A DNA stretch of 64,000 nt from Bradyrhizobium roseum (GTDB taxonomy: Bacteria > Pseudomonadota > Alphaproteobacteria > Rhizobiales > Xanthobacteraceae): positions 6,486,450 through 6,550,449 of the forward strand of contig NZ_CP129212.1 of NCBI RefSeq assembly GCF_030413175.1, in the 5' to 3' direction. The position numbers and the translations under genes are program-made. Below the pieces are notes generated by a model. It had not been told where the DNA came from, searched no databases, and worked only from the letters and a program-made list of their open reading frames with translations. Positions within the stretch are counted from its first letter, which is position 1. Each line of letters opens with the position of its first letter. Positions 47,270-53,730 of this stretch are shown here, piece after piece.

Positions 47270-48211
47270 TTATCCGGCGCCTGCCGGCGCGGTTTCGTTT
47301 CTGGCCGATTGTTTCATGATCGCAGACGGATCGGCGCCGACGCGCCCGCTGGTCTTGTCGGCCTCGCTCTCGCGCGACAGCCGCATGTCGAAGCGGATGC
47401 TCGGCATGCCCTTGATCGGGCAGTCCGGATCGTTGGCCTTGACCTCGACGGCGAGATCGCCCGACGAGCCGAACACCACATCGTCGGCGAGATGAGGATC
47501 GTCGCGCAGATAGAGCGCGGTGACCAGTTCGCGATAGCCGGACGCACCGACCAGGAAATGAATATGCGCCGGCCGCATGCCATGCCGCGCCTGCGCCTTC
47601 ACCATGGCGCCGACCGGCCCGTCCATGGGAATCGAATAGCCGAGCGGTTTGACTGTGCGCAGTACATAGAGGCCATCGGCATCGGTTGCGAACACGCCGC
47701 GATAATCGACTGATGTCGCGCTGGTCTGGATGTCGTACAGGCCGTCGGCGCCGGTCTGCCAGATCGAGACGGTGGCGCCCGCGACCGGCTTGCCGGCGAC
47801 CTCGGTGACGCGGCCGTAAAGCACGCATTCGCTGTCCGGCTTGGAATTCTTGGCGATCGAGCTGCCGGCGGCGAGCGTCGGTGTCGCCTCGCGGTAGAAC
47901 GGACCGAGCAGGCTGGTGTGGGTGGCGTCTTCCAGGGCGGTGGCGTCGTGCAGGCCATTGACCAGTGCCGAGAGGCCGAGCGTGTCGGACAACAGGATGA
48001 ATTCCTGCCGTTCCGGCGAGCACATCTTGCCGGCGGCGGTCATGAATTCGATGCCTTTGATCCATTCCGCGGGCGTCAGATTGACCTCGCGGGCGAAGGC
48101 GTGGAGATGCTTGACCGCCGACGCCATGATCGCCTTCAGGCGTGGGTCCGGCGTCGTCGCCATCTGGTCGAGCACGGCGTCCGTGATCGTTTCAGGCGTC
48201 AGCTCACGCAT
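47270..48211 (-). CDS. Intradiol ring-cleavage dioxygenase (catechol/hydroxyquinol 1,2-dioxygenase type)
   Basis: 313 residues. A non-heme Fe(III) enzyme splitting a catecholic ring between its two hydroxyls. The N-terminal helical dimer domain (about 1-100, DATHTSLLGPFYREATP) is that of catechol and hydroxyquinol dioxygenases. Metal ligands are visible: Tyr in GADGLYDIQ, Tyr in LGYSIPMDGP, and the histidines of RPAHIHFLV. Whether catechol, hydroxyquinol or another diol is the substrate cannot be read. GGGGAG precedes the ATG. It is the first gene of the transporter operon; no cycloisomerase or maleylacetate reductase is present here. Confidence 0.92.
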   Translation of the reverse strand: MRELTPETITDAVLDQMATTPDPRLKAIMASAVKHLHAFAREVNLTPAEWIKGIEFMTAAGKMCSPERQEFILLSDTLGLSALVNGLHDATALEDATHTSLLGPFYREATPTLAAGSSIAKNSKPDSECVLYGRVTEVAGKPVAGATVSIWQTGADGLYDIQTSATSVDYRGVFATDADGLYVLRTVKPLGYSIPMDGPVGAMVKAQARHGMRPAHIHFLVGASGYRELVTALYLRDDPHLADDVVFGSSGDLAVEVKANDPDCPIKGMPSIRFDMRLSRESEADKTSGRVGADPSAIMKQSARNETAPAGAG

Positions 48212-48418: not shown

Positions 48419-48754
48419 TCATTTCTCGCGGATCGGCGGCGCGATCTTCTCCGCGGGCGCCGGCGGCAGCGCAGGCTGGGCACCTGCCTTCTGCGCGTCC
48501 TCGTCGGGACGGGCCGGTTGCGGCGGAATGTCCGAGGGCCTTTGACCGGTCGTAGCCGGTTCGGACGGCGCAGACGGCTTTGTTTCTGCGCCGGGCGTCG
48601 ACTGCGTCGGCTGCGTTGCCTGCGCGATCTGCAAGGGTCCGCTGGTGCTCAGCACGGTCAGTGCCAGTGCCGAAATGCCCAACCCTGCCGCAATCAGCAT
48701 GGATGCCAGCAGCATTTCCCGTCGGTATTCGCGTTGGCGGCTTTCGGCAGACAT
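48419..48754 (-). CDS. Small single-helix membrane protein with Pro-rich tail
   Basis: About 111 residues. A charged N-terminus (MSAESRQREYRREM) precedes one membrane helix (LLASMLIAAGLGISALALTVL), followed by a Pro/Ala/Thr/Glu-rich, probably disordered periplasmic segment ending APPIREK. I use the ATG with GGGG upstream; a TTG 45 bases earlier is possible. It is not a recognised family. It lies 85 bases after the zinc operon end on the same strand, and co-transcription is uncertain. Confidence 0.6.
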   Translation of the reverse strand: MSAESRQREYRREMLLASMLIAAGLGISALALTVLSTSGPLQIAQATQPTQSTPGAETKPSAPSEPATTGQRPSDIPPQPARPDEDAQKAGAQPALPPAPAEKIAPPIREK

Positions 48755-48839
48755 CTCGGTCAACCCCACAAGATTGTTCGCGGGGTCAACGGCCGGCAAG
48801 GCGCAAGGTTCCGCGGCGGCTCAAGCCCGCCCGAACCGC

Positions 48840-49856
48840 CTAGAATTCGAGCATCCCTGCGTCGCCATCCTCGGTGCCGAAGGCCAGCAGCGTGCCCTTG
48901 GCGTTCCAGGCCAGCGCCGAAACCGGTTCGCCGCCATTGCGGCGCACCAGGATTTCCGCGCCGTCCTCGAGCCGGACGATCAGGATGGTGCCATCGCTGT
49001 AGCCCGCGGCCATGATGTCCTGCTTTGGATGACAGGCCACCGCGGAGACGCGCGCCTGCAGTGGCGCCAGCATCGCCGGCTCCTTGCCCATCGGACCGTC
49101 CTTGCTGGTGAACGGCCAGATGATCACGGTATCGGCGCCCGAGGTGGCGAGCCCCTTTCCGCCGACGCTCCACGACATCGAACGGACGCGGCCGGGATAG
49201 CCGCTCATCCGCATGTGCCTGTTGTCGGCCAGCCGCCAGCCGTGCAACGCCGGCTCATGCATGCCGGTGACCAGGAATTTGTTGTCGGGACTAAAGGTGA
49301 CGGCGAGGTGGGAGCCGGCCCATTCGAGATATTCCGGCTTGGCCGCCATGTTGGGAAACCACAGCGTCACGCCATTGTAGTGGGCGACCGCCACACGCAG
49401 TCCTTTCGGTGCGAAGGCGAGGCCGCCGACGGTCGAGGGCGCATCAAAACTCTTCTCGTCGCCCTTGCCGCTGCGGACGAACGCCGTCTTGCCGGCCGAC
49501 CACGCCACCGCGCCGTCGGGATGCAGCGCGACATTATCGATCCAGCGCCGCTTGGCGTCGGTCGCGAGCACCGTAACCTCGCCCTTCGCGTCGAGCGCAA
49601 CGACCTTGCCATCGTCACCGCCGGTGACGATTCGCTTGCCGTCGCATGCTGCGCAGAGCACGGCACCGCCATGGATGGCGACGGTCGAGATTTCACCGGC
49701 CTCGTTGACCATCGCCGCGGTTTCCTCGGCGCCGATAAACACCGCCGTGTCACCGAGGAAATGAACCGAGGTGACCGGCATGCCGACGGGGAGCTTTCTC
49801 ACCTGGTCGGTGAGGGAAGCGATGGAGGGCATTTCGCCCGGATCGAATTCTTTCAT
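48840..49856 (-). CDS. WD40-like beta-propeller protein, coupled to COG0523 GTPase
   Basis: 338 residues with no signal peptide, predicted cytosolic. It is made of repeated blades of about 40 residues with WD-type strand patterns (DGKVVALDAKGEVTVL, AVAHYNGVTLWFPN, ATSGADTVIIWPF, AAGYSDGTILIVRLEDG, FGTEDGDAGMLEF), enough for a seven-bladed propeller. WD40 proteins are interaction scaffolds and are uncommon singly in bacteria. The ATG overlaps the GTPase stop as TGATG, so the two are probably translated together. This places it in the zinc operon, where it might act with the GTPase; the function is unknown. Confidence 0.82.
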   Translation of the reverse strand: MKEFDPGEMPSIASLTDQVRKLPVGMPVTSVHFLGDTAVFIGAEETAAMVNEAGEISTVAIHGGAVLCAACDGKRIVTGGDDGKVVALDAKGEVTVLATDAKRRWIDNVALHPDGAVAWSAGKTAFVRSGKGDEKSFDAPSTVGGLAFAPKGLRVAVAHYNGVTLWFPNMAAKPEYLEWAGSHLAVTFSPDNKFLVTGMHEPALHGWRLADNRHMRMSGYPGRVRSMSWSVGGKGLATSGADTVIIWPFTSKDGPMGKEPAMLAPLQARVSAVACHPKQDIMAAGYSDGTILIVRLEDGAEILVRRNGGEPVSALAWNAKGTLLAFGTEDGDAGMLEF

Positions 49857-50908
49857 CACGTGGTAATACAGCTCTCAAAACCGTCGCGGATCATCTGTTC
49901 CGGCAATTCGCGGCCAATGAAGACGACCCGGCTTTCGCGCGCCTCGCCGTCCCTCCATTTCCGCTGGTGATCGCCCTCCAGCATCATGTGTACGCCCTGG
50001 AACACGTAGCGGTCGTCGTCATCGGTGAAGGCGAGGATGCCCTTCGACCGCAAAATCTTCTGGCCCTCGGTGGCGACGAGGTTTTGCAGCCACGGCATGA
50101 ATCTGGTTGGATCGAGCGGCTTGTCCGACCGCAGCGACAGCGATTGCATGTCCTCATCGTGGTAGTGCTTCAGCCCGCCATGGCTGTGGCCGTGATCGTG
50201 GTCATGGCCGTGGTGGTGATCGTGATCATGGTGATGATCGTGCCCGTCGCCGGCGTCGAGGAATTCCGGCTCGATCTCCAGGATGCGATCCAGATCAAAC
50301 GCGCCACGCTCCAGCACATCCGCCAGCGCCACCTTGCAGCGCTCGGTACGGTGCAGTTTTGCGTAGGGGTTGATTCCGCGGATGCGCGCCTCGACTTCGG
50401 CCAGTTCGGCCTTGGAGACGAGGTCGGTCTTGTTCAGGACGATGACGTCGGCAAACGCGATCTGGTTCTTGGCTTCAGGGGCATCCTTGAGACGGTCGCT
50501 CAGCCATTTGGCGTCAGCCACGGTGACGACGGCGTCGAGGCGGGCGTTCTTCTGCACGTCCTCATCGACGAAGAAGGTCTGAGCCACCGGCGCAGGATCG
50601 GCCAATCCCGTGGTCTCGACGATGATGGCGTCGAATTTGCCCTTGCGCTTCATCAGCCCGTCCAGGATGCGCACGAGGTCGCCGCGCACAGTGCAGCACA
50701 CGCAGCCATTGTTCATTTCGAACACTTCTTCGTCGGCGCCGATGATCAGATCGTTATCGATGCCGATCTCGCCGAATTCGTTGACGATGACGGCGTATTT
50801 CTTGCCGTGGTTTTCCGACAGGATGCGGTTGAGCAGCGTGGTCTTGCCGGCGCCGAGATAACCCGTCAGCACGGTCACTGGAATTTTTGGGGACGAAGGT
50901 TCAGACAT
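49856..50908 (-). CDS. COG0523 (CobW/ZigA-like) metallochaperone GTPase
   Basis: 350 residues of the G3E family. P-loop TGYLGAGKTTLLNRIL, metal-binding CxCC motif NGCVCCTVRGDL, Walker B/G3 region IIVETTGLADPAP, and the G4 motif VLNKTDLVSK. A linker rich in histidine (about 220-245, HDHHHDHDHHHGHDHDHG) joins the CobW C-terminal domain. Such proteins deliver Zn or Co to client enzymes under metal shortage. Its place downstream of zinc ABC-transporter genes and a Zur-type box points to the zinc-starvation subgroup. It is coupled to the WD40 gene downstream. Confidence 0.94.
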   Translation of the reverse strand: MSEPSSPKIPVTVLTGYLGAGKTTLLNRILSENHGKKYAVIVNEFGEIGIDNDLIIGADEEVFEMNNGCVCCTVRGDLVRILDGLMKRKGKFDAIIVETTGLADPAPVAQTFFVDEDVQKNARLDAVVTVADAKWLSDRLKDAPEAKNQIAFADVIVLNKTDLVSKAELAEVEARIRGINPYAKLHRTERCKVALADVLERGAFDLDRILEIEPEFLDAGDGHDHHHDHDHHHGHDHDHGHSHGGLKHYHDEDMQSLSLRSDKPLDPTRFMPWLQNLVATEGQKILRSKGILAFTDDDDRYVFQGVHMMLEGDHQRKWRDGEARESRVVFIGRELPEQMIRDGFESCITT

Positions 50909-50962
50909 AACAGCTCCGGGCGGAATTAATGGTCACGCCGGCAGACAGGGAGGGCCCCTGCC

Positions 50963-51832
50963 CTATGGGCTCAGCGCGCTGGTCAGCGCCTTTATATTGT
51001 GCCTGACCATTGCAATGTAAGTGGGAGAATCGCCCTTTTCGCCGGTCAGGCTGTCGGAATAGAGCGTTCCGCCGACCCGGACGCCGGTCTCGGCCGAGAT
51101 CCGGCCCATCAGGCGGGGGTCGCTGATATTTTCGAGGAAGACCGCCGGTATCTTGGCCGCCCTGATCTGGGTGATGATCCTTGCAACATCGCGGGCGCTG
51201 GCTTCGGATTCGGTCGAGACCCCGACTGGGGCAATGAACTGGACGCCGTAGGCGGCGGCAAAATAGCCGAAGGCATTGTGCGTGGAAATCACCTTGCGGC
51301 GGCTTTCGGGGATTTTTGCGATCCCATCGCGCACCTCGCGCTCCAGCGCGTCGAGACCGGCCAGATAGGCGGCAGCACGCGACTTGAAGCCTTCCGCTTC
51401 CGCAGGTGCTGCGGCTGCCAGCGCATCGCGGATATTGGTGACGTAGATCTTCGCGTTCGCGATCGATTGCCAGGCGTGCGGATCGGCCTCCGAGCCGAGC
51501 TTGAGCGGCGCGATGCCCGTCGTCGCAGTCACGACCGAAGCCTTGGCACCGGCGGATTTCACCAGCCGCGGCAGCCAGCCCTCAAAGCCAAGGCCGTTGA
51601 CAAAGACGAGCTTCGCATCTGCTACTTTTTTTGCGTCCGAAGGTGTCGGCGCATAGACATGGGCATCGCTGTCGGGGCCGACCAGCACGGTGACATTGAC
51701 GCGATCGCCTCCGACGTTGCGCACAAAATCGCCGAGGATCGAGAAACTCGCGACGACGTTGAGGCGCTCCTGCGCCTGCGCCGGAGCCACGGCCGCAAAC
51801 AAGGCGAAAGCGATGAGACATATCCGGATCAT
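50963..51832 (-). CDS. znuA: Zinc ABC transporter substrate-binding protein (ZnuA-like)
   Basis: A 289-residue cluster A-I metal-binding protein. Signal peptide MIRICLIAFALFAAVAPAQA, then ERLNVVASFSILGDFVRNVGG. Likely metal ligands are His in DSDAHVYAPTPSD, His in EADPHAWQSI, His in ISTHNAFGYFAAAYG, and the acidic residue in LYSDSLTG. The His-rich loop seen in E. coli ZnuA is absent, as in AztC/MntC-type proteins, so Mn cannot be excluded by motif alone. Zinc is favoured because the operon has a Zur-type box and a COG0523 gene. It starts two bases after the permease stop. Confidence 0.9.
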   Translation of the reverse strand: MIRICLIAFALFAAVAPAQAQERLNVVASFSILGDFVRNVGGDRVNVTVLVGPDSDAHVYAPTPSDAKKVADAKLVFVNGLGFEGWLPRLVKSAGAKASVVTATTGIAPLKLGSEADPHAWQSIANAKIYVTNIRDALAAAAPAEAEGFKSRAAAYLAGLDALEREVRDGIAKIPESRRKVISTHNAFGYFAAAYGVQFIAPVGVSTESEASARDVARIITQIRAAKIPAVFLENISDPRLMGRISAETGVRVGGTLYSDSLTGEKGDSPTYIAMVRHNIKALTSALSP

Positions 51833-51834
51833 GA

Positions 51835-52704
51835 CTAGGCCTCGAGATGGCGGCCGGGAAACATTTGCCGCACCAGTCCGCTGACGGGACCGAACAACAG
51901 TGACGCCACGTAGATTCCCGCCGCGATCAGGATGATTGCGGGTCCCGAGGGAATCCTGGTCTGGAACGACAGCACCAGCCCGGCATAGCCCGAAACGACG
52001 GCGCTGGCGACCGCGATGCAGATCATGCCGGTGATGTCGCGCGACCAGAACCGCGCAATGCCGGCGGGCAGGATCATCAGACCGACGCCGAGTAGCGTGC
52101 CCAGCGCGTGAAAGCCGTTGACGAGGTTGATCACGACCAGCGCGAGGAACGCCAGATGCGCGGGCGCGCCGGCACGCGAGACGGTCCGCAGGAACACTGG
52201 ATCGACGCATTCGATCACCAGCGGGCGATAGATCACCGCCATCACCAGGAGTGTGATGGTGGCGTTGAAGGCGATGACCAGCAGGGTCTGGTCGTCCATT
52301 GCGAGAATGTTGCCGAACAGCACGTGCAGCAGATCGATGTTGGTGCCCTTGACGGAAACGATGGTGACGCCGAGCGCCAGCGACACCAGATAGAAAGTCG
52401 CAAGCGAGGCGTCCTCCTTCAGCTCGGTATGGCGGGCGACGAGGCCGGCGAGCAGCGCGACCGTAAAGCCCGCGATCAGCCCGCCCGTCGTCATCGCGAA
52501 CAGGTTGAGGCCAGAGACGAGGAAGCCGATCGCCGCTCCCGGCAGGATCGCGTGCGCCATGGCGTCGCCGACAAGGCTCATCCGCCGCAGCATCAGGAAC
52601 ACGCCGATGGGGGCGGCGCCGAGCGCGAGCGCAATCACGGCGGCGAGCGCGCGGCGCATGAACTCGAATTCGGTAAAGGGCGCGATCAGCGCGTCGTACA
52701 ACAT
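51835..52704 (-). CDS. znuB: Zinc ABC transporter permease (ZnuB-like)
   Basis: 289 residues with eight or nine membrane helices of the ABC-3 family. Typical features are FEFMRRALAAVIALALGAAPIGVFLMLRRMSLVGDAMAHAILPG in the first part and ALGTLLGVGLMILPAGIARF later. The start overlaps the ATPase stop by one base (TGATG), so a longer upstream reading was rejected. It forms the import channel with the ATPase and ZnuA-like protein on either side. Confidence 0.92.
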   Translation of the reverse strand: MLYDALIAPFTEFEFMRRALAAVIALALGAAPIGVFLMLRRMSLVGDAMAHAILPGAAIGFLVSGLNLFAMTTGGLIAGFTVALLAGLVARHTELKEDASLATFYLVSLALGVTIVSVKGTNIDLLHVLFGNILAMDDQTLLVIAFNATITLLVMAVIYRPLVIECVDPVFLRTVSRAGAPAHLAFLALVVINLVNGFHALGTLLGVGLMILPAGIARFWSRDITGMICIAVASAVVSGYAGLVLSFQTRIPSGPAIILIAAGIYVASLLFGPVSGLVRQMFPGRHLEA

Positions 52705-53462
52705 CAGGCCGCCCGCGGCGCCGCGGCGTCCACGGCGCAAGCGGCCGCCGTGTCGTCGAATGCTTCGCACATCCGCCGCGCCTGTGTAAGGTTTTCGACG
52801 GTCAACACCTGCGCGGTCGGTCCCCACGCCACCGGTCCGCGCGCCAGCAGCAGCGTTTCCGGAAAATGCGCGCGCACCAGATCGAAATCGTGCAACGCCG
52901 CCAGCACCGTGCGCCCCTCGTCGTGCCAGCGCCGCACCAGCGCCAGCAGGTCGGTCGAGGTTTTGGCGTCGATGGCGTTGAACGGCTCGTCCAGCACGAT
53001 CAGCCGTGCATCCTGCAGCAGCGCGCGCGCGAACAGCATGCGCTGCATCTGGCCGCCGGACAGCGTGCCGATCGAACGGTTTTCAAAGCCGTTGAGCCCG
53101 ACCGAAGCCAGCGCCTGCGTGATCTTCTGCCGCGCTGTCTTGCCCATGCCGCCGAAGAAGCCGGTCGTGCGCCACAGGCCGGTGCCGACCAGATCGAACA
53201 CCGAGATCGGAAATGTCCGGTCGATGTCCACGCTCTGCGGCAGATAGGCGATGTCGCGAATATCGAGGCCGCCAAGATCGATCGAGCCCGCGAGCGGCTT
53301 CAGGATGCCGGCGAGCCCGCGAAACAGCGTCGATTTGCCGGCGCCGTTCGGGCCGACCACCGCCAGCAACGCGCCCTGCGCGACCTGGCCGTCGAGGTGG
53401 TGCACCGCCGGGTGGCGGTCATAGCCCAGCGTAACGTCGCGGAATGTGATCTGTGCGGCCAT
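52704..53462 (-). CDS. znuC: Zinc ABC transporter ATP-binding protein (ZnuC-like)
   Basis: A 252-residue ATPase. Walker A is VVGPNGAGKSTLFRGLAG, the Q-loop region AYLPQSVDIDRTFP is characteristic of metal-type ABC-3 ATPases, the signature is GTLSGGQMQRMLFARAL, Walker B LIVLDEPFNAID, and the switch His is in ALHDFDLVR. The C-terminus lacks the extra Zur-like zinc-binding domain of some ZnuC proteins. GAGGTG precedes the ATG and is part of the preceding small gene, whose stop is two bases upstream. Confidence 0.93.
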   Translation of the reverse strand: MAAQITFRDVTLGYDRHPAVHHLDGQVAQGALLAVVGPNGAGKSTLFRGLAGILKPLAGSIDLGGLDIRDIAYLPQSVDIDRTFPISVFDLVGTGLWRTTGFFGGMGKTARQKITQALASVGLNGFENRSIGTLSGGQMQRMLFARALLQDARLIVLDEPFNAIDAKTSTDLLALVRRWHDEGRTVLAALHDFDLVRAHFPETLLLARGPVAWGPTAQVLTVENLTQARRMCEAFDDTAAACAVDAAAPRAA

Positions 53463-53464
53463 GC

Positions 53465-53650
53465 TCACCTCATCGCCACCAGCACGACGGCCCACAGCGC
53501 CACGCTGACGGCGAGCGCGGCGGCCAGCCGCCCCGCCACGGTCATGCGCAGGATCGACCATGGGGCAGCCTGCGGCGGATGTGGCGTCGCCGGGCCATGG
53601 GCGTGACTGTGGTGATGATGGGCGTGATCGTGGGGATGGGCGTGCGGCAT
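53465..53650 (-). CDS. His-rich membrane microprotein, first gene of the zinc operon
   Basis: 61 residues. The first 26 hold eleven histidines (MPHAHPHDHAHHHHSHAHGP), then a linker, then one membrane helix near the C-terminus (LAAALAVSVALWAVVLVAM). The stop lies two bases before the ATPase ATG and the coding sequence contains that gene's ribosome site, so it is firmly in the operon. A Zur-type palindrome sits nine bases upstream of the start. A role in binding Zn at the membrane for the importer, or in sensing, is inference. No close named family is known to me. Confidence 0.72.
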   Translation of the reverse strand: MPHAHPHDHAHHHHSHAHGPATPHPPQAAPWSILRMTVAGRLAAALAVSVALWAVVLVAMR

Positions 53651-53658
53651 GGCTTGAC

Positions 53659-53671
53659 GTTATAATATAAC
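53659..53671. promoter_or_regulatory. Zur-type operator
   Basis: GTTATA-A-TATAAC is a perfect palindrome matching the core of alphaproteobacterial Zur boxes (ATGTTATAnTATAACAT type). It lies immediately before the zinc-uptake operon and also faces the decayed gene on the plus strand. The AT-rich core overlaps possible -10 elements in both directions, so bound Zur would block initiation. Confidence 0.8.
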
Positions 53672-53730
53672 ACTGCGGAAGTCCACGCGTCCCCGGGTGG
53701 CCAGCCCGCCCCTAATACCGTCCCCACGCC

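What the first reader, a model, noticed from the sequence alone, without database searches (positions are those of the whole stretch)
48840..53671. Zinc-starvation operon headed by a His-rich membrane microprotein and ending in a coupled WD40 protein
A Zur-type palindrome precedes a 61-residue protein with eleven His in its first 26 residues and one membrane helix. Tightly packed ATPase, permease and binding-protein genes follow, then a COG0523 GTPase with a His-rich loop, and a WD40 propeller started by TGATG. Zinc uptake plus COG0523 is known. The microprotein and the propeller are not standard members and may form a new zinc acquisition and delivery unit.
Basis: partly seen in the sequence, partly recalled or inferred. 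Interest (0 to 1): 0.7.

Follow-up and report, generated by a model that had tools for sequence, protein, structure and literature searches.

The report
Zinc importer's overlooked tiny membrane protein
A bacterial zinc-starvation operon begins with an unnamed tiny membrane protein that accompanies one branch of zinc importers in several groups of Proteobacteria, and ends with a metal-handling GTPase and a propeller protein whose link to zinc was already noted in 2009.

Summary
On the minus strand a Zur-type palindrome (53658-53672) precedes six packed genes: a 61-aa His-rich one-helix protein, an ATPase, permease and binding protein (closest to AztABC), a COG0523 GTPase with a His loop, and a WD40 protein, predicted to be an eight-bladed propeller.

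The WD40-COG0523-znuABC-Zur link is not new: Haas 2009 states it for COG0523 subfamily 5. Here the pair co-occurs in 69 of 199 Hyphomicrobiales genomes (70 have the WD40, 73 the GTPase) and is adjacent in 53.

The microprotein is the new part. It belongs to a family that matched no Pfam or NCBIfam model, encoded directly before the ATPase of one AztABC-like branch. A profile without positional information hit 39 of 199 Hyphomicrobiales genomes, and in 37 the permease follows; outside the order, 9 of 10 examined hits lie beside the same importer. The helix core is conserved; the His tail is optional. Five AztD-type operons examined lack it. Rhizobium leguminosarum encodes such a protein, probably in the 153 bp before zniC (inferred).

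Most likely it is a small accessory subunit of the importer. Zinc binding, topology and complex formation are inferred, not shown.

The parts
53658..53672 (.). Zur-type 15-bp palindrome (7-1-7), 7 nt upstream of the microprotein start
   Evidence: 1 mismatch to TGTTATANTATAACA; a comparable site upstream of the ATPase in 68 of 71 relatives; same 7-1-7 architecture as the published S. fredii Zur box (PMC7029138, passages)
53465..53650 (-). 61-aa microprotein: His-rich N-terminal tail plus one C-terminal hydrophobic helix with the core S-[IL]-L-R-x5-R-L...W
   Evidence: no Pfam or NCBIfam family; pN/pS 0.34
52704..53462 (-). ABC importer ATPase, AztA/ZnuC type
   Evidence: Pfam ABC_tran; best NCBIfam AztA at 218.1 bits against a cut-off of 220
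51835..52704 (-). ABC importer permease, AztB/ZnuB type
   Evidence: Pfam ABC-3; best NCBIfam AztB at 257.4 bits, cut-off 280; tree
50963..51832 (-). zinc-type periplasmic binding protein, AztC type
   Evidence: Pfam ZnuA; best NCBIfam AztC at 303.3 bits, cut-off 350; best PDB sequence hits 5kzj, 5w56/5w57, 6xpn, 8svc (5W57 is AztC and 8SVC is ZniA)
49856..50908 (-). COG0523 (CobW family) GTPase with a His-rich loop and CxCC motif
   Evidence: Pfam cobW and CobW_C; alignment A3 of 5 sequences
48840..49859 (-). WD40 protein, predicted eight-bladed propeller; no signal peptide seen by eye (no predictor run); start overlaps the COG0523 stop (TGATG)
   Evidence: Pfam WD40; AlphaFold model pLDDT 94.7; nearest solved folds include TBLR1/TBL1XR1, Rsa4, ODA16 and the eight-bladed design Tako8

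Best explanation
This is a Zur-repressed zinc acquisition and delivery operon made of two modules. Module 1 is an AztABC-like zinc importer with a dedicated small single-helix membrane protein translated just before, and probably coupled to, the ATPase. Module 2 is a COG0523 GTPase of the kind called subfamily 5, with a WD40 partner. When zinc falls, Zur leaves the palindrome and all six genes are made (inferred). The binding protein, permease and ATPase import zinc (family knowledge). The microprotein most likely packs its helix against the permease as an accessory subunit. Its tail, probably on the cytosolic side, holds or senses zinc at the exit. The GTPase, with the WD40 protein as its docking partner, passes zinc to client proteins. 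Shown here: the gene order, its conservation, the two separable modules, the microprotein family and its linkage, the propeller fold prediction. Inferred: repression by Zur, membrane topology, zinc binding, complex formation and delivery.
For: All six genes in order in 65 of 80 fetched loci, and an annotated small protein-aztA-permease-binding protein-GTPase-WD40 run in Skermanella mucosa, of another order (the small protein scores 39.7 bits). The microprotein lies before the ATPase in 70 of 71 loci by ORF script; the 71st, L091, has a tblastn match there. Profile hits made without positional information land beside the importer: 37 of 39 in 199 Hyphomicrobiales genomes, and 9 of 10 examined of the 11 found outside the order. 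Core residues invariant where the tail varies. More Lys/Arg in the 15 residues before the helix (mean 2.03) than after it (0.93) in 70 proteins, which favours a cytosolic tail. COG0523 and WD40 co-occur in 69 of 199 genomes where 25.7 are expected, and are adjacent in 53. Elsewhere in this genome strong boxes lie between a receptor-like gene and a second gene that reads as COG0523 (my reading of the sequences). Zur regulation of related importers is published (PMC5387054, PMC12183173, PMC7029138; passages).
Against: No experiment on this operon. The AztD-type branch of the same importers does without the microprotein, so it is not needed by every AztAB. Of 76 Hyphomicrobiales genomes with this permease, 13 examined lack it. 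Many members lack the His tail (28 of 139 loci have 0-2 His), so zinc handling by the tail cannot be the shared function. 18 of 63 microprotein loci outside the set lack a good Zur-like site, and stand-alone WD40 genes showed none. The co-occurrence figure ignores relatedness of the genomes. PMC10642216 calls ZNG1 a eukaryote-specific subfamily (passage), so the client mechanism of ZNG1 may not carry over.
Confidence: 0.55

Rival explanations
1. The microprotein points the other way: its His tail is in the periplasm and feeds zinc to the binding protein, doing the job that AztD does in AztABCD systems.
For: Operons with AztD lack the microprotein: 0 of 5 azt operons from named plasmids, and the two AztD-linked importers among the 199 genomes (G161, G223) lack it too. 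The permease tree puts AztD operons in a clade of 16 rows with one weak microprotein hit.
Against: Charge distribution favours a cytosolic tail. Many members have no His tail. The exclusion may only reflect ancestry: 8 of the 15 microprotein-free rows of that clade come from genomes without an AztD match at E <= 1e-20, and two genomes carry both AztD and microprotein at different places.
Confidence: 0.22
2. The microprotein is a small regulatory subunit that shuts the importer when its cytosolic His tail fills with zinc (trans-inhibition), similar to intracellular autoregulation described for a ZIP transporter.
For: Tail probably cytosolic; tail length varies while the helix is fixed; precedent PMC10256678 (only title and start of abstract seen, in the listing; that a His-rich loop is involved is recalled).
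Against: No direct evidence; tail-less members exist.
Confidence: 0.2
3. The small ORF is a leader peptide or translational-coupling device for the ATPase gene, and its amino-acid sequence hardly matters.
For: It lies directly downstream of the Zur-type box, and its stop is a few nt from or overlaps the ATPase start.
Against: Purifying selection (pN/pS 0.34), core residues invariant in 70 of 70, a helix core recognisable outside the class, and no Rfam match at the gathering score.
Confidence: 0.06
4. The WD40 gene is a passenger of the operon with an unrelated function.
For: In 12 loci with the WD40 gene alone there is no Zur-like site and no importer in the stretch seen.
Against: 69 of 70 genomes with the WD40 also have this type of COG0523, and 53 have it just upstream on the same strand; the link was seen independently in 2009.
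Confidence: 0.12

Closest known systems
AztABCD zinc importer (Paracoccus denitrificans and others)
   Same: ATPase, permease and binding protein score best against AztA, AztB and AztC; Zur motif at the start (PMC5387054); gene order ATPase, permease, binding protein.
   Different: All three score below the NCBIfam cut-offs; no AztD match at E <= 1e-20 in this genome; an extra microprotein gene in front, which five AztD-type operons lack; GTPase and WD40 behind.
ZniCBA of Rhizobium leguminosarum (PMC12183173)
   Same: Zur-regulated ATPase-permease-binding protein operon (passages and section 13). The published 153-bp distance from Zur box to zniC fits a 42-aa microprotein, and R. leguminosarum encodes such proteins.
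   Different: Section 13 and the passages seen name three genes and do not mention the microprotein. That it lies in that gap is my inference from an unnamed relative (L281).
COG0523 subfamily 5 (Haas 2009; includes most eukaryotic COG0523 proteins according to that paper)
   Same: GTPase clustered with WD40 and znuABC genes and a Zur site, as that paper states for prokaryotic members.
   Different: No phylogeny against that paper's subfamilies or eukaryotic ZNG1 was made here. The microprotein is not in the passages seen.
AztD, periplasmic zinc-binding propeller
   Same: A propeller protein encoded in a zinc importer operon; both eight-bladed (AztD per PMC6689063; the WD40 protein by its nearest folds).
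   Different: The WD40 protein matches WD40 families by sequence, shows no signal peptide by eye, and is tied to the GTPase rather than to the binding protein.
CbtB and other small one-helix accessory proteins of metal transporters (recalled, from no call)
   Same: Small, one helix, His-rich stretch, encoded beside a metal transporter (recalled).
   Different: No CbtB model among the Pfam hits of the 18 members of A4 at E <= 1; here the His stretch is N-terminal, in CbtB C-terminal as I recall.

Membership tests
AztABCD zinc importer | ATPase, permease and binding protein reach the NCBIfam AztA/AztB/AztC cut-offs | tested here: not met
   218.1/220, 257.4/280 and 303.3/350 bits: nearest family, all below cut-off
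AztABCD zinc importer | AztD metallochaperone gene in the operon | tested here: not met
   Not among the operon genes; no AztD match at E <= 1e-20 in this genome
Zinc ABC importer of the ZnuA/ABC-3 class | ABC_tran ATPase, ABC-3 permease and ZnuA-family binding protein in one operon | tested here: met
   all above gathering scores
Zinc ABC importer of the ZnuA/ABC-3 class | Transports zinc | not testable with these tools
   Inferred from family and Zur-type box only
Zur regulon | Zur-type palindrome at the promoter | tested here: met
   architecture as in PMC7029138
Zur regulon | Zinc-dependent repression by Zur | not testable with these tools
   No expression data
COG0523 subfamily 5 | COG0523 GTPase clustered with WD40 and znuABC genes | tested here: met
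   against the description
COG0523 subfamily 5 | Falls in the subfamily 5 clade of the COG0523 tree | not tested
WD40 propeller | WD40 repeats and propeller fold | tested here: met
AztD | Structural or sequence relation of the WD40 protein to AztD | tested here: inconclusive
   AztD is not among the rows shown, which excludes nothing; the sequence families matched are WD40 type
Any named small-protein family (Pfam, NCBIfam) for the microprotein | Reaches a curated cut-off | tested here: not met
   0 families for the window protein at E <= 0.01 and at E <= 1. Among 18 members only weak hits, best 0.033 in Pfam and 0.0088 in NCBIfam, each family in at most 3 members
New microprotein family | Conserved helix core next to an AztA/ZnuC-type ATPase | tested here: met

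The most novel reading that the evidence does not exclude
The microprotein is a true fourth subunit of a separate branch of bacterial zinc ABC importers, overlooked because it is about 40-90 residues long. Where the His tail is present it receives zinc leaving the permease, or gates the permease, on the cytosolic side, and hands zinc to the His loop of the co-encoded GTPase, which the WD40 protein docks onto clients. Zinc would then pass from periplasm to client without joining the free pool.
Probability: 0.12. Interest if true: 0.85.

Novelty: new variant of a known kind. Interest (0 to 1): 0.6.

Why it matters
Zinc ABC importers are treated as three-part machines plus optional periplasmic helpers. 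A conserved helix encoded with one branch of them, in alphaproteobacteria and beyond, suggests a missing membrane subunit. It would also mean that a studied operon such as zniCBA may have an unstudied first gene in what is treated as promoter DNA. The GTPase-WD40 pair, known since 2009 as a gene neighbourhood, becomes testable in harmless rhizobia.

Tried and rejected
Considered and rejected: a strain-specific oddity; chance ORF or leader peptide; microprotein and WD40 as one joint unit; membership in AztABCD; CbtB (the family is recalled). P0120 carries a CbtA Pfam tag (PF09490, name recalled), but its sequence reads like a metagenome chimera joined in the His stretch; not used.

Weak points and dropped rows. 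Early tblastn 'micro' matches inside the His loop of COG0523 genes (L112, L141, and a distant one in L155) are spurious and were not counted. The first microprotein script ignored strand, so only its plus-strand loci were informative; one search replaced it. The regex missed real members; the profile replaced it. That profile was trained on many of the loci it then scored, so its counts are not independent; of 194 loci with the ATPase and at least 150 nt before it, 175 score 18 bits or more, and its control (opposite strand of the same stretches) peaked at 11.3. The 139 loci had repeat fetches removed by hand, and some may still be the same species (L244 and L106 encode the same protein). In the tree two genomes are in twice (L264/L182, L260/L178). 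'Neither' rows L292 and L308 do have AztD nearby and L317 an annotated aztD. L309, L311 and L312 fall outside the importer group. The genome searches score a limited number of candidates (at most 31 a genome), so 39 is a lower bound. L065, a GTPase-WD40 pair without importer, has a Zur-like site before the GTPase (13.0), against the trend for that group. Neighbours of GTPase-WD40 pairs without importer gave no single recurrent client. AztD did not appear in the structure listings.

Literature on a small protein before znuC/aztA: the searches (and 6, 10, 20, 27, 37, 101 for the wider subject) listed none that I could recognise from titles and abstract starts; the library holds open-licence papers only. 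Seen of papers: passages of PMC2770081, PMC6689063, PMC7029138, PMC10642216, PMC5387054 and PMC12183173 (of the last also section 13); of the others only listings.
Full report
CHECK. The window lies at 6,486,450-6,550,449 of a 7.3-Mb single-contig genome. I infer Bradyrhizobium, because most of the closest named loci for the WD40 protein are Bradyrhizobium. Reading the sequence confirms each item of the finding. The order on the minus strand is palindrome, 61-aa His-rich ORF, ATPase, permease, binding protein, COG0523 GTPase, WD40 protein. Neighbouring genes overlap or lie 2 nt apart, except for 54 nt before the GTPase gene. Pfam recognises all but the microprotein. NCBIfam puts the transporter nearest to AztA, AztB and AztC, each below the curated cut-off. 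The binding protein's best PDB sequence hits include AztC (5w57) and ZniA (8svc) (names).

PALINDROME. A whole-genome scan with TGTTATANTATAACA gave 8 forward hits at up to 2 mismatches, some overlapping, against 2 for the reversed control pattern. Four places have 0 or 1 mismatch: this operon; two boxes between a 792-aa receptor-like gene and a divergent 402-aa gene that reads as COG0523 (L167); and one at 3,214,007 without a clear target. A 2-mismatch overlapping pair lies before a 799-aa receptor-like gene (L169). 'Receptor-like' (TonB-dependent type) and 'COG0523' are here my reading of the sequences; no family search was run on them. This is what a Zur regulon would look like, and the box has the 7-1-7 architecture of the published one (PMC7029138, passages). 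Across 71 relatives, 68 have at least 12 of 14 matches upstream of the ATPase. In a wider set 45 of 63 microprotein loci have a site scoring 9 or more on a matrix built from those relatives, and 18 do not.

WD40 AND GTPASE. In the 199 Hyphomicrobiales genomes searched, the WD40 protein is found in 70 at E <= 1e-40 and the GTPase in 73 at E <= 1e-80. Both occur in 69, against 25.7 expected by chance, and in 53 the GTPase gene lies just upstream on the same strand (under 1.5 kb); relatedness is not corrected for. In the 80 loci fetched with the WD40 profile, 76 have the GTPase and 65 hold all six genes. A run annotated as small protein, aztA, permease, binding protein, GTP-binding protein and WD40 protein lies on a plasmid of Skermanella mucosa, in Rhodospirillales. 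The model of the WD40 protein has mean pLDDT 94.7; its nearest folds are WD40 propellers, including eight-bladed ones such as the Tako8 design. Haas et al. 2009 wrote that prokaryotic members of COG0523 subfamily 5 cluster with WD40, znuABC and creatinase genes, and that several are predicted downstream of a Zur site (PMC2770081, passages). So this half of the finding is known as a gene neighbourhood; I found no mechanism for it in the passages seen. In 12 loci where the WD40 gene stands alone there was no Zur-like site. Of the five GTPase-WD40 pairs without an importer scanned there, one (L065) has such a site.

MICROPROTEIN. The first search found it in 37 of 60 genomes: 35 of the 36 of the genus, this one included, and two weak hits outside. 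A script then found a one-helix ORF before the ATPase in 70 of 71 loci. Aligned, the tail varies in length and His number, while S, L, R, R and W of the core S-[IL]-L-R-x5-R-L...W, and one tail His, are invariant in 70 of 70. A profile of 18 members (A4) carries no positional information. In 199 Hyphomicrobiales genomes it hit 39; in 37 of these the permease gene follows on the same strand 728-974 nt downstream, the space of an ATPase gene, and in G215 and G106 it does not. In the 29 loci fetched for these hits (L171-L199), ATPase and permease both lie next to it. In 299 Pseudomonadota genomes the profile hit 29, of which 11 lie outside the order. Of these 11 I examined 10; 9 have ATPase and permease directly next to the hit, the tenth (G351) does not, and G233 was not examined. 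A wider core profile added members: of the 76 Hyphomicrobiales genomes with this permease at E <= 1e-50, 55 have the microprotein, 13 examined do not, and 8 were not examined (counted by hand). Of 139 loci with 18 bits or more, 101 have six or more His in the 50 residues before the helix motif, 10 have 3-5, and 28 have 0-2. So the shared function lies in the helix, and the His tail is an elaboration.

WHICH IMPORTERS HAVE IT. In a tree of 102 permeases (two genomes in twice), 83 rows carry the microprotein. One clade of 16 rows (support 100/98) holds the AztD operons and most of the microprotein-free rows, with one weak microprotein hit; outside it 82 of 86 rows have the microprotein. Five AztD-type operons from named plasmids (Paracoccus, Sinorhizobium, Klebsiella, Qingshengfaniella, Devosia) have none. 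In these the best Zur-like site starts 53 to 78 nt before the ATPase gene, with scores from 5.4 to 18.6, against 210 nt and 25.7 in the window's own locus; that leaves no room for the ORF. AztD is not excluded at genome level: two genomes have it elsewhere beside a microprotein importer.

A STUDIED OPERON. R. leguminosarum zniCBA is a Zur-regulated importer whose Zur motif is reported 153 bp before zniC (PMC12183173, section 13). In L281, an unnamed relative, Zur-like inverted repeats start 169 and about 155 nt before the ATPase gene. Between them and the ATPase lies a 42-aa ORF of the family whose stop overlaps the ATPase start. Rhizobium proteins named (R. leguminosarum, R. etli, R. johnstonii and others) are 79-93% identical to that 42-aa protein; most are named hypothetical protein, a few carry other automatic names. 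I did not have the R. leguminosarum DNA, so the placement is an inference.

HOW IT WORKS. Shown: gene order, conservation, linkage, purifying selection (pN/pS 0.34), fold prediction. Inferred: Zur repression; helix packed against the permease; tail in the cytosol, from a mean of 2.03 Lys/Arg before and 0.93 after the helix in 70 proteins; tail as zinc holder or gate; GTPase with WD40 delivering zinc. The delivery role of COG0523 GTPases rests on eukaryotic ZNG1, which hands zinc to methionine aminopeptidase 1 (as summarised in PMC10642216, passages). The same paper calls ZNG1 eukaryote-specific, and whether this bacterial GTPase is a close relative was not tested by a tree.

VERDICT. The operon is real, and its propeller half is already known as a neighbourhood. 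The microprotein is an unnamed, widely conserved companion of one branch of zinc ABC importers: a new variant of a known kind, worth an experiment.

Noticed in passing
window 48419-48799 (-): A 126-aa one-helix, Pro-rich protein without a Pfam match follows the WD40 gene; a relative lies in 61 of the 80 loci, at varying distance.
   Followed up: partly
window 47270-48211 (-): A catechol-type dioxygenase (Pfam Dioxygenase_N and _C) lies downstream; found in 2 of the 80 stretches.
   Followed up: no
L167 2707-7231 (this genome about 1,817,706-1,822,230): Two strong Zur-type boxes (L167 5661 and 5938) between a 792-aa receptor-like gene and a divergent 402-aa gene that reads as COG0523: probably a second zinc-starvation locus.
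   Followed up: partly
L220 3757-5976 and L169 1049-3507 (this genome about 2.940-2.946 Mb): Two adjacent genes that read as COG0523, one 74% identical to the window's GTPase over 222 aa but without a WD40 neighbour in the stretch seen, near a receptor-like gene with a weaker Zur-type box.
   Followed up: partly
window 53650-53672: The Zur-type box ends 7 nt before the start codon, and similarly close in many relatives, so the mRNA leader may be very short or absent.
   Followed up: no
L213 at 4012 and L214 at 3737: In one genus whose WD40 gene lies elsewhere, a Zur-like box (score 20.1) lies inside the 3' end of the permease gene, before the binding-protein gene.
   Followed up: no
L222, L224, L227, L232, L064, downstream of WD40: A small protein with a motif like Q(V/L/A)PEFxQQYRQRLGGA recurs behind GTPase-WD40 pairs without a listed importer.
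   Followed up: no
L065 4958-5746: A protein containing RRPIAVLPLGAHEQHGPHLP, which I recall as creatininase-like, lies just before a GTPase-WD40 pair; Haas 2009 mentions 'creatinase' neighbours. Possible zinc client.
   Followed up: no
P0120: A metagenome ORF joining a start tagged PF09490 to this microprotein through the His stretch; probably an assembly chimera.
   Followed up: partly
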